5,040 nt of DNA from Sulfurimonas sp. (lineage in GTDB: Bacteria; Campylobacterota; Campylobacteria; Campylobacterales; Sulfurimonadaceae). This document shows, piece after piece, positions 894-2,018 of the stretch. Numbering within the stretch: the first letter of the stretch is position 1; the number at the start of each line of letters is the position of its first letter. The DNA lies in the NCBI GenBank assembly GCA_022712845.1, contig JAFLJV010000010.1, positions 1 to 5,040 of the forward strand. Direction: 5' to 3'. A program made the translations under genes and the position numbers. The notes beneath the pieces were generated by a model, which saw nothing but the letters and a program-made list of their open reading frames with translations, was not told the origin of the DNA and searched no databases.

Positions 894-932
894 AACTTAT
901 TTTCTCCTTCCTGTTTTGTGAGAAAATAAGTT
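894..932. other. Hairpin 1 of the array
   Basis: A perfect 13-bp stem (894-906 with 920-932) closes a 13-nt loop at 907-919 that contains TTCCTGTTTT. The stem is AT-rich and its right arm reads GAGAAAATAAGTT. It begins 8 bases after the porin stop codon. The following bases are GCCCTC, not a T-tract. Confidence 0.9.
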
Positions 933-942
933 GCCCTCTATA

Positions 943-980
943 GTTCATTTCCTGCTTTCCTGTTTTGTATGGAAATGGGC
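943..980. other. Hairpin 2 of the array
   Basis: A 7-bp Watson-Crick stem, CATTTCC (946-952) with GGAAATG (971-977), extends to 10 bp as RNA by two G-U pairs and a G-C pair (943-945 with 978-980). The 18-nt loop at 953-970 contains TTCCTGTTTT at 957-966. The two G-U pairs form only if the plus strand is the RNA, which weakly favours plus-strand function. Confidence 0.8.
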
Positions 981-984
981 CCTC

Positions 985-1020
985 CTCATCCTCTCATTTC
1001 CTGTTTTATGAGAAGATGAG
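985..1020. other. Hairpin 3 of the array
   Basis: A 13-position stem (985-997 with 1008-1020) has one C-A mismatch (991/1014) and closes a 10-nt loop that is exactly TTCCTGTTTT (998-1007). It aligns with hairpin 1 and carries two compensatory pair changes relative to it. A T-rich stretch begins about 8 bases downstream (1028-1042), so weak terminator activity is possible but the spacing is not canonical. Confidence 0.85.
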
Positions 1021-1030
1021 TAGAGTCTAT

Positions 1031-1051
1031 TTTAACTTTTTTGGATATACT
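1031..1051 (+). promoter_or_regulatory. Probable sigma-70 promoter of the permease gene
   Basis: TATACT at 1046-1051 matches five of six positions of the TATAAT -10 box and is preceded by a T-rich tract (1031-1042). T-tracts upstream of the -10 box, without a clear -35 box, are typical of Campylobacterota housekeeping promoters. The expected transcription start is about 1058-1059, the A of the ATG itself, so the mRNA may have no leader. This fits the lack of a well-placed Shine-Dalgarno sequence. Inferred from motif and spacing only. Confidence 0.45.
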
Positions 1052-1058
1052 TTTCATT

Positions 1059-2018
1059 ATGAATCAACTCATCAAAAAAATCTTTTATATACTTTTTATG
1101 CTTATATTAATCTCTATTATTTCATTTTTAGCTATTCATGCCGCTCCAAATAGTTTTTTTGGTGCTGGTGAATTAAATCCAAATATGACACCAGAAGCAA
1201 TAGCCGCCTTAAAAGCTATATATGGGCTAGATAAATCACTTTTACAGCAATATACTGACTGGGTTATAAATATTTTTTCTTTCAATTTTGGTATCTCGTT
1301 TGTTAATGGACAAGATGTTAGCTCTGAGATACTAAAGAGACTTCCAATTACTCTTAGTATGAACATAATAGCTCTCCTAGCGGTATTTATTATATCTTTA
1401 TATTTAGGCATAAAATCAGCACTTAATTATGAAAAAAAAACTGATTATATCATTCGTCAAATCTCTTTAATCTCTTTTTCAATGCCATCATTTTATTTGG
1501 CATTGCTATTTATCATATTTTTCTCATTAAATTTAGATTTGTTTCCAATTTCTGGTCTTCATTCAATTGAACCAAAAGAGGGATTTGAGTACTATCTTGA
1601 TATGGCTTGGCATTTAGTTTTACCAATAGGTGTTATGATATTTCTTGGTCTTGGAAGTATGATAATTTATGTTCGATCACTTACATTAGAGATACTAAAG
1701 AGTGATTATTACTATTTTGCACTATCTCGTGGCTTAGAAAAAAAAGAGTTATTAAGATATTACATCTTTCCAAATCTATTACCACCAATTATTACACTTT
1801 TAGGATTATCTATCCCTGGATTAATAGGAGGTAGTGTTATTTTAGAGTCTATATTTGGGATTGAAGGTATGGGACAGTTGTTTTTTATGAGTGCATTAAG
1901 TAGAGATTATCCTATTATTATGGGAACTTTAATGATTACAGCATTTTTAACACTGCTTGGAAATATGATAGCGGATTTAATTTTATTAAAATTAAATCCA
2001 TATATGAAACGGGGATAG
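1059..2018 (+). CDS. ABC transporter permease, DppB/OppB type
   Basis: This 319-residue inner-membrane protein has the usual length for the DppB/OppB permease family, which pairs with a DppC-type partner, ATPases and a periplasmic binding protein to import peptides, nickel or related solutes. From the ATG: TM1 at about 8-28; the family N-terminal region with LNPNMTPEAI and YGLDKSLLQQY at about 40-66; hydrophobic segments near 98-120, 135-160, 183-206, 241-262 and 288-310; the EAA cytoplasmic loop at about 221-238 (ALSRGLEKKELLRYYIFPN), which docks onto the ATPase; and the family signature ESIFGIEGMG at 263-272 followed by SRDYPIIMG. A TTG at 1041 in the same frame could start the protein six residues earlier, but it lies upstream of the -10 box and lacks a ribosome site. 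GGA at 1043-1045 is too far from the ATG for a normal Shine-Dalgarno. No DppC, ATPase or binding-protein gene is present, and the next gene is on the other strand. The substrate cannot be told. Confidence 0.85.
   Translation: MNQLIKKIFYILFMLILISIISFLAIHAAPNSFFGAGELNPNMTPEAIAALKAIYGLDKSLLQQYTDWVINIFSFNFGISFVNGQDVSSEILKRLPITLSMNIIALLAVFIISLYLGIKSALNYEKKTDYIIRQISLISFSMPSFYLALLFIIFFSLNLDLFPISGLHSIEPKEGFEYYLDMAWHLVLPIGVMIFLGLGSMIIYVRSLTLEILKSDYYYFALSRGLEKKELLRYYIFPNLLPPIITLLGLSIPGLIGGSVILESIFGIEGMGQLFFMSALSRDYPIIMGTLMITAFLTLLGNMIADLILLKLNPYMKRG

What the first reader, a model, noticed from the sequence alone, without database searches (positions are those of the whole stretch)
894..1020. Three tandem hairpins with conserved loops and co-varying stems behind a porin gene
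Three hairpins in 127 bases share the exact loop 10-mer TTCCTGTTTT (908, 957, 998) while their arms differ. Hairpins 1 and 3 are alignable, with left arms offset by 89 bases and right arms by 90. They differ by two fully compensatory pairs, 898/928 against 987/1018 and 901/925 against 990/1015, plus one C-A mismatch. A conserved loop on changing but pairing-preserving stems is the signature of a structured RNA or single-stranded DNA element whose loop is the recognised part. None has the T-tract of an intrinsic terminator, and no family I can name matches. It could be a stability or processing module of the porin mRNA, a multi-hairpin small RNA released from the 3' UTR, a protein-binding array, or a dispersed repeat family found at gene ends.
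Basis: partly seen in the sequence, partly recalled or inferred. Interest (0 to 1): 0.72.

Follow-up and report, generated by a model that had tools for sequence, protein, structure and literature searches.

The report
Conserved-loop hairpins behind Sulfurimonas porin genes
Behind outer-membrane porin genes of many Sulfurimonas bacteria sit hairpins whose stems change freely between species while the loop, UUCCUGUUU, stays nearly the same, so the loop is probably read by a partner that is still unknown.

Summary
The three hairpins are real and placed as described. They are not a dispersed repeat. In 135 Sulfurimonas-group genomes a covariance model gives 53 hits: 41, in 38 genomes, lie at one locus between an outer-membrane porin gene and an OppB-type permease; the other 12 are weak, 8 of them inside open frames. 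Stems differ between clades but keep pairing; the loop motif is unpaired in 31 of 32 occurrences folded. G-U outnumbers A-C in the stems 23 to 6, favouring RNA of the porin-sense strand. Upstream genes are of an Opr-like or a TorF porin family, and one copy is a terminator-like hairpin behind a third beta-barrel gene. Best reading: a 3'-end stem-loop of porin mRNAs whose exposed C/U-rich loop is recognised in trans, as RepG and CJnc190 loops are, without shown kinship. No transcript, partner or target was found. No Rfam family matches. Against it: the nearest relative, L001, carries the loop inverted; only 28 of 76 loci have the motif; four have an ordinary terminator in front of it.

The parts
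894..932 (+). Hairpin 1: arms 894-906/920-932 (13 of 13 paired), loop motif TTCCTGTTTT 908-917
   Evidence: 53.9 bits with R1, but it is one of the five rows R1 was built from
943..980 (+). Hairpin 2: arms 943-952/971-980, loop motif 957-966; weakest of the three; its 3' arm overlaps the basal arm of extended hairpin 3
   Evidence: R1 30.4 bits
973..1032 (+). Hairpin 3: core arms 985-997/1008-1020, extended 973-997/1008-1032 (imperfect), loop motif 998-1007; the copy with orthologues at the same distance from the permease in close relatives
   Evidence: R1 32.0 bits
1..885 (+). 3' part of the upstream porin-like gene (frame open at the window start; ends ..YLTYNF)
   Evidence: no Pfam match for this fragment; full-length relative L005 matches NCBIfam Opr family porin at 36.9 bits, cut-off 150
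1046..1051 (+). Probable -10 box (TATACT) of the permease gene, 13 bases before its ATG
   Evidence: position read; distance from loop motif 46 in the window, 25-89 in 28 rows
1059..2018 (+). OppB/NikB-type ABC transporter permease gene downstream
   Evidence: NCBIfam equivalogs all below their cut-offs; Pfam BPD_transp_1 above

Best explanation
The hairpins are a 3'-end RNA element of outer-membrane porin mRNAs in Sulfurimonas. The porin transcript runs into one to three stem-loops that sit where its terminator sits, between the stop codon and the next gene's promoter. Their stems end or protect the mRNA, which needs pairing but no particular sequence. The loop leaves UUCCUGUUU unpaired, and this exposed C/U-rich motif is recognised in trans, most likely by base pairing (as a 3'-UTR-derived small RNA or as a docking site on the mRNA), less likely by a protein. 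Shown by sequence: essentially one locus per genome, conserved loop, pairing-preserving stems, unpaired motif, link to porin genes. Supported only by a G-U excess: function as sense-strand RNA. Inferred: transcription through the element, 3'-end formation or protection there, and the existence of a trans partner.
For: Locus: 41 of 53 model hits, in 38 of 135 genomes, lie at the porin-permease locus with 26.3-56.5 bits; the other 12 have 24.4-28.1 bits, 8 of them inside open frames. Four of the 41 are rows the model was built from, and some have variant loops (for instance G018, G051, G057, G133). In 36 loci fetched for a promoter-spaced pattern, all 17 hairpins of arm score 10 or more stand before this permease. 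Loop: TTCCTGTT occurs in 23 of 76 upstream regions, as often as the commonest octamer with the -10 box (GATATAAT, 24); 0-2 in 20 shuffled sets. Unpaired: 31 of 32 occurrences at least 0.9 unpaired, 30 of 32 also enclosed by 7 or more pairs, other positions mean 0.44 (four pairs of loci are near-copies). Covariation: 10 of 12 pairs changed on both sides in 5 hairpins, 98.3% of cells paired against 78.6% shuffled (rows chosen as hairpins). Strand: G-U 23, A-C 6 in 33 hairpins; 12 to 1 outside the eight with the window's hairpin-3 type of stem. Porins: L039 has the hairpin plus nine T behind the first of two tandem porins; L136 has the loop in a terminator-like hairpin behind another beta-barrel gene; TorF porin behind L018, 148.6 bits, cut-off 47.15. 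Precedent in the phylum: RepG and CJnc190 act through C/U-rich loops (passages).
Against: No transcript data. L001, the nearest relative (91% permease identity), has the loop of hairpin 3 inverted. In L024, L038, L056 and L073 a canonical terminator precedes the motif hairpin, so it would be reached only by read-through. T content after the last G-C pair is 0.51 for 24 motif hairpins and 0.52 for 53 short-loop ones; directly after the arm 0.60 against 0.51, so termination at the motif hairpin is neither shown nor excluded. No target found; 7-mer complements in the upstream gene are not enriched (7 in 34.4 kb against 13 in 53.8 kb). Only 28 of 76 loci carry the motif under a loose pattern, and related but different loops occur (L013, L049, L063, G018), so it is replaceable. 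Strand-biased C-to-T mutation could also give a G-U excess; no neutral control was run.
Confidence: 0.5

Rival explanations
1. Ordinary intrinsic terminators (single or tandem) of strongly expressed porin genes; the loop is kept for transcriptional or structural reasons, or by descent, without a partner.
For: Same position as the short-loop hairpins of loci without the motif, e.g. L003, L066; T tracts in L039, L048 and L136; T fraction directly after motif hairpins 0.60 against a background of 0.40; the G-U excess also fits any RNA terminator; related C/T-rich loops in L013, L049, L063 suggest a continuum.
Against: Many loci end the porin with short loops, so the site does not need the motif; the motif persists behind a canonical terminator in four loci and in internal loops; longest T run of 4 or more after the last G-C pair in 11 of 24 motif hairpins only.
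Confidence: 0.27
2. A binding site for an RNA-binding protein or nuclease on porin mRNAs, recognising UUCCUGUUU held above a stem.
For: Motif unpaired and enclosed in 30 of 32 occurrences, in apical or internal loops; shared by unrelated porin genes.
Against: No protein identified or searched for. CsrA sites (GGA, recalled) would fit only the other strand, where the G-U evidence points the wrong way.
Confidence: 0.15
3. A small RNA on the opposite strand whose loops read ACAGGA, a CsrB/RsmZ-like sponge.
For: Minus-strand loops read AAAACAGGAA, with further GGA motifs between them in the window.
Against: G-U 23 against A-C 6 favours the plus strand. Most relatives have one motif hairpin. Starts of abstracts seen in the listing (PMC4894983, PMC7829508) describe CsrA control in Campylobacter jejuni by FliW, without antagonising small RNAs.
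Confidence: 0.04
4. A DNA-level element: an upstream site of the permease promoter, or a single-stranded DNA hairpin.
For: Loop inverted in L001, which a DNA hairpin would tolerate; near the permease promoter in most carriers.
Against: Distance from motif to -10 box varies from 25 to 89 bases; L039 and L136 carry it away from the permease; G-U bias.
Confidence: 0.04

Closest known systems
RepG sRNA of Helicobacter pylori
   Same: C/U-rich loop of a terminator stem-loop; same phylum; the loop is the acting part (PMC8295292, passages seen)
   Different: RepG is transcribed from its own intergenic gene and has a known G-repeat target; here the hairpins directly follow porin genes and no target is known; kinship was not tested beyond Rfam
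CJnc190 sRNA of Campylobacter jejuni
   Same: C/U-rich loop that pairs with a G-rich ribosome-binding site (PMC8687705, passages seen)
   Different: Encoded opposite another small RNA and matured by RNase III; different setting
Short-loop hairpins (presumed intrinsic terminators) at the same locus
   Same: Position between porin stop codon and permease promoter; often a pyrimidine-rich 5' arm and purine-rich 3' arm
   Different: Loops there are mostly 3-8 bases, often T-rich, with a few longer C/T-rich ones (L013, L049, L063); here TTCCTGTTT or a close variant in loops of about 10-20 bases
REP and other dispersed palindromes
   Same: Palindromes between genes
   Different: Not dispersed: one locus per genome, plus one case at another beta-barrel gene end and few weak hits

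Membership tests
Rfam families (release 15) | Match at the curated gathering score | tested here: not met
   0 matches in the window and 12 loci at gathering; best in the window at E up to 1: RF03788, 23.6 bits, cut-off 75
Intrinsic terminator | GC-rich stem directly followed by a T tract | tested here: inconclusive
   24 motif hairpins: T fraction 0.60 directly after the arm, 0.51 after the last G-C pair (9 of 24 at 0.66 or more); 53 short-loop hairpins: 0.51 and 0.52; background 0.40. Clear in L039, L048, L136; the window's hairpins are not in the terminator list
Dispersed repeat (REP-like) | Many copies per genome | tested here: not met
   67 TTTCCTGTTTT sites in ten genomes: 8 hairpins of score 12 or more, 7 at the porin locus; 1-3 model hits per carrier genome
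RepG/CJnc190-type regulatory RNA | C/U-rich unpaired loop in a stem-loop | tested here: met
   (predicted structure)
RepG/CJnc190-type regulatory RNA | Discrete small transcript | not testable with these tools
   no transcriptome available
RepG/CJnc190-type regulatory RNA | Complementary purine-rich target near a ribosome-binding site | tested here: inconclusive
   AAACAGGAA 1-10 bases before ATG: 200 sites in 28 of 28 genomes, reversed-pattern control 79 (my sums); an excess is expected from AGGAA ribosome-binding sites; the list was cut and the genes were not identified
CsrB/RsmZ sponge | Several GGA loops on one transcript | tested here: inconclusive
   present on the minus strand of the window; most relatives have one motif hairpin; strand bias is against it

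The most novel reading that the evidence does not exclude
Sulfurimonas porin mRNAs of unrelated families carry a shared 3'-UTR module that is released as a small RNA, with one to three near-identical C/U-rich loops and freely evolving stems, and that co-ordinates outer-membrane composition by pairing with purine-rich ribosome-binding sites: a convergent or distant counterpart of RepG, encoded in the porin message itself.
Probability: 0.25. Interest if true: 0.72.

Novelty: new variant of a known kind. Interest (0 to 1): 0.5.

Why it matters
A nine-base loop kept across much of a genus while its stem is rewritten marks an interaction site that can be tested directly. If it is a porin-encoded regulatory RNA, it would show how Campylobacterota (recalled: without Hfq or ProQ) might tie outer-membrane protein supply to other genes. 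The work also gives a covariance model and a list of carrier genomes for that test.

Tried and rejected
CsrB-like sponge on the minus strand: the first idea after (note); set aside after the G-U/A-C count and the single-hairpin relatives. Dispersed repeat: rejected. Promoter-upstream protein site: made unlikely by the variable distance to the -10 box. Pairing of the loop with the porin's own ribosome-binding site or coding region: the upstream genes' Shine-Dalgarno stretches read mostly AAGGAGAA, GGGAGAA or AAGGAAA, without a consistent match (by eye), and 7-mer complements are not enriched. Trans target with an 11-base complement: in ten genomes the AAAACAGGAAA sites outside the locus mostly lie in long open frames, and no shared ribosome-binding-site target was seen (by eye). 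Mutually exclusive pairing of hairpins 2 and 3 (attenuator): the arms overlap in the window, but my three-way complementarity test was too permissive (27 of 28 motif loci, 44 of 48 others, shuffles about 0.65), so nothing is claimed. Presence outside the genus: in 248 genomes drawn evenly from the order, 6 have a hit at E up to 0.001; three are genus members at the locus, three others lie inside open frames (the search used stricter filters and scored 27 candidates per genome). Motif presence on a permease tree: 28 of 76 rows, at least 14 changes, 6 forced by starred branches (quick method); gain and loss cannot be separated.

Rows dropped or chosen before counts: the strand count uses 33 of 36 distinct hairpins (L065, L215 and L217 left out as not at porin genes; with them 24 against 6); one of the 33 is L136. 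The structure count uses 5 hairpins picked because they fold and align without gaps. One search skipped sites within 30 bases of a locus end. Searches use 76 of 81 sequences (five too short upstream). In one search seven loci cut by contig ends have no upstream gene (L019, L021, L026, L037, L041, L058, L071). One search covers 36 fetched loci, not all matches. One search leaves out loci whose upstream region is under 30 or over 350 bases or unknown, for instance L026 and L037. In one search only two of five loci gave a readable gene end (L265, which is L136 again, and L266, loop TTCTCCTGC); the other three were missed by the script's filter. Porin family was tested on L005, L018, L039 and L136 only; other upstream genes were judged by eye from their ends.

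Full report
What is in the window. The window holds the end of a porin-like gene (1-885), an OppB/NikB-type permease gene (1059-2018), nusA on the other strand, an HP0268-family gene, and a radical-SAM/UPF0004/TRAM gene of the MiaB type (the name MiaB is recalled). The permease is 91% identical to that of a Sulfurimonas metagenome assembly (L001). No whole genome is held for the window itself.

One locus, much of a genus. A scan of genome contigs with the permease gave 80 loci of Sulfurimonas type. Of 106 TTCCTGT sites in them and the window, 23 lie in hairpins of arm score 9 or more; 22 of these lie just upstream of the permease, in 20 loci and the window (the other, in L017, lies inside the permease match). 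Nine rearranged heptamers gave 0-2 such hairpins each. In ten whole genomes all 67 TTTCCTGTTTT sites were fetched and folded: eight reach arm score 12, seven at this locus and one behind another beta-barrel gene. The pattern count itself is only moderately above its reversed control in several of these genomes, so it is the hairpins, not the motif, that single out the locus. A covariance model built from five copies finds 53 hits in 46 of 135 genomes of the genus: 41 hits in 38 genomes lie at this locus, the other 12 are weak (24.4-28.1 bits), 8 inside open frames and 4 outside those listed. Four of the 41 are the model's own rows; G018, G051, G057, G133 and the upstream copies of G014 and G025 have variant loops. 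The permease is found in 121 of the 135 at E up to 1e-80. In 248 genomes from the order the only locus hits are in three genus members.

Loop constant, stem free. Stems range from 7 to 25 positions and share little between clades beyond a pyrimidine-rich 5' arm and a purine-rich 3' arm. In five gapless hairpins 10 of 12 pairs have changed on both sides and 98.3% of cells still pair, against 78.6% in shuffles; these rows were chosen as hairpins, so this shows how far stems have diverged rather than proving structure. The less biased test is, where regions were taken because they hold CCT[GA]TTT, not because they fold: 31 of 32 occurrences are at least 0.9 unpaired and 30 of 32 are also enclosed by at least seven pairs; other positions average 0.44. 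The exceptions are an arm match in L029 and an unenclosed extra motif in L056; four pairs of loci are near-copies, so the 32 are not independent. In L028, L038, L051, L057 and L073 the motif lies on the 5' side of an internal loop with another stem above it, so it is exposure of the motif, not a loop size, that is kept. TTCCTGTT occurs in 23 of 76 upstream regions, level with the commonest single octamer holding the -10 box (GATATAAT, 24; the box in all contexts is commoner), and 0-2 times in shuffled sets.

Which strand. In 33 distinct hairpins at porin genes, G-U pairs on the porin-sense strand number 23 and A-C pairs (G-U on the other strand) number 6, with arms chosen by a strand-symmetrical score. 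Without the eight hairpins that share the window's hairpin-3 type of stem it is 12 against 1. This supports an RNA of the sense strand. The hairpins are related, so a probability would overstate it; strand-biased mutation is not excluded and no neutral control was run. The permease -10 box lies 11-13 bases before the permease match in 24 of 28 rows, so the hairpins lie upstream of the permease's own transcript.

Which gene it goes with. The upstream gene is an Opr-like porin (L005, NCBIfam 36.9 bits, below the cut-off of 150) or a TorF-family porin (L018, 148.6 bits, cut-off 47.15). L039 has two porins in a row and carries the hairpin, with nine T shortly behind it, after the first one and not before the permease. 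L148 and L152 have a variant-loop hairpin after the large porin and the standard one after the small one. L136 is a terminator-like hairpin with the loop TTTCCTGTTTT behind a third kind of beta-barrel gene (OMP_b-brl 28.5 bits, cut-off 28.7); a 51% identical relative has the loop TTCTCCTGC. In five loci where the upstream gene is not a porin (L012, L014, L023, L033, L067) the motif is absent. So the element goes with porin gene ends.

What it does. Many loci without the motif have a short-loop hairpin in the same place, so the site is the porin's 3' end. The motif is kept where a canonical terminator already precedes it (L024, L038, L056, L073). T content behind motif hairpins is 0.60 directly after the arm (short-loop hairpins 0.51, background 0.40) but 0.51 against 0.52 after the last G-C pair: compatible with termination, not specific to it. 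I therefore take the stem as a 3'-end structure and the loop as a recognition site. C/U-rich loops of RepG and CJnc190 pair with G-rich mRNA sites in this phylum (passages of PMC8295292 and PMC8687705), which makes RNA pairing the first guess. No target was found. A complement search (AAACAGGAA shortly before ATG: 200 sites in 28 of 28 genomes, control 79) was not followed to gene level and decides nothing.

Against. L001, the nearest relative, has hairpin 3 with the loop inverted. Its other hairpin has a C/U-rich loop (TCCCTCCTATTTTT) in the normal direction, so a sense-strand function could survive there, but the inversion remains the strongest single observation against an RNA reading. Only 28 of 76 loci carry the motif, scattered over the tree with at least 14 changes, and related but different loops occur (L013, L049, L063), which leaves room for a plain terminator with a drifting loop.

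Known or new. No Rfam family matches in the window or 12 carriers. Literature searches (open-licence papers, listings; passages only of PMC12306157, PMC3847290, PMC8687705 and PMC8295292) showed no description of such an element; subscription papers are not covered.

Noticed in passing
window:973-984: The 3' arm of hairpin 2 overlaps the basal 5' arm of extended hairpin 3, so the two cannot both form fully; a similar overlap is seen by eye in L001 and L005. My test for an attenuator was uninformative.
   Followed up: partly
L001:4926-4963: The loop of the orthologous hairpin is inverted between its arms in the nearest relative, as if the palindrome had flipped its spacer.
   Followed up: partly
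window:1046-1061: The permease -10 box is only 11-13 bases before the permease start in 24 of 28 rows, suggesting a leaderless or nearly leaderless mRNA.
   Followed up: no
L013, L029, L014, L015: Closely similar permeases (L013/L029, L014/L015) have different genes upstream, so the slot beside the permease may be exchanged between close relatives; these are metagenome assemblies.
   Followed up: no
L217:1685-1720: Well-paired hairpin with the loop TTTCCTGTTTTTG outside the listed open frames in G134, not behind a recognised porin; of the 12 off-locus model hits it is the one closest to the porin element.
   Followed up: no
L219:91-121, L221:1633-1663: Two genomes carry the hairpin TGTTATTTTCCC..GGGAAAATAACA with a different loop directly behind the same lipoprotein-like gene; found as weak model hits.
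   Followed up: no
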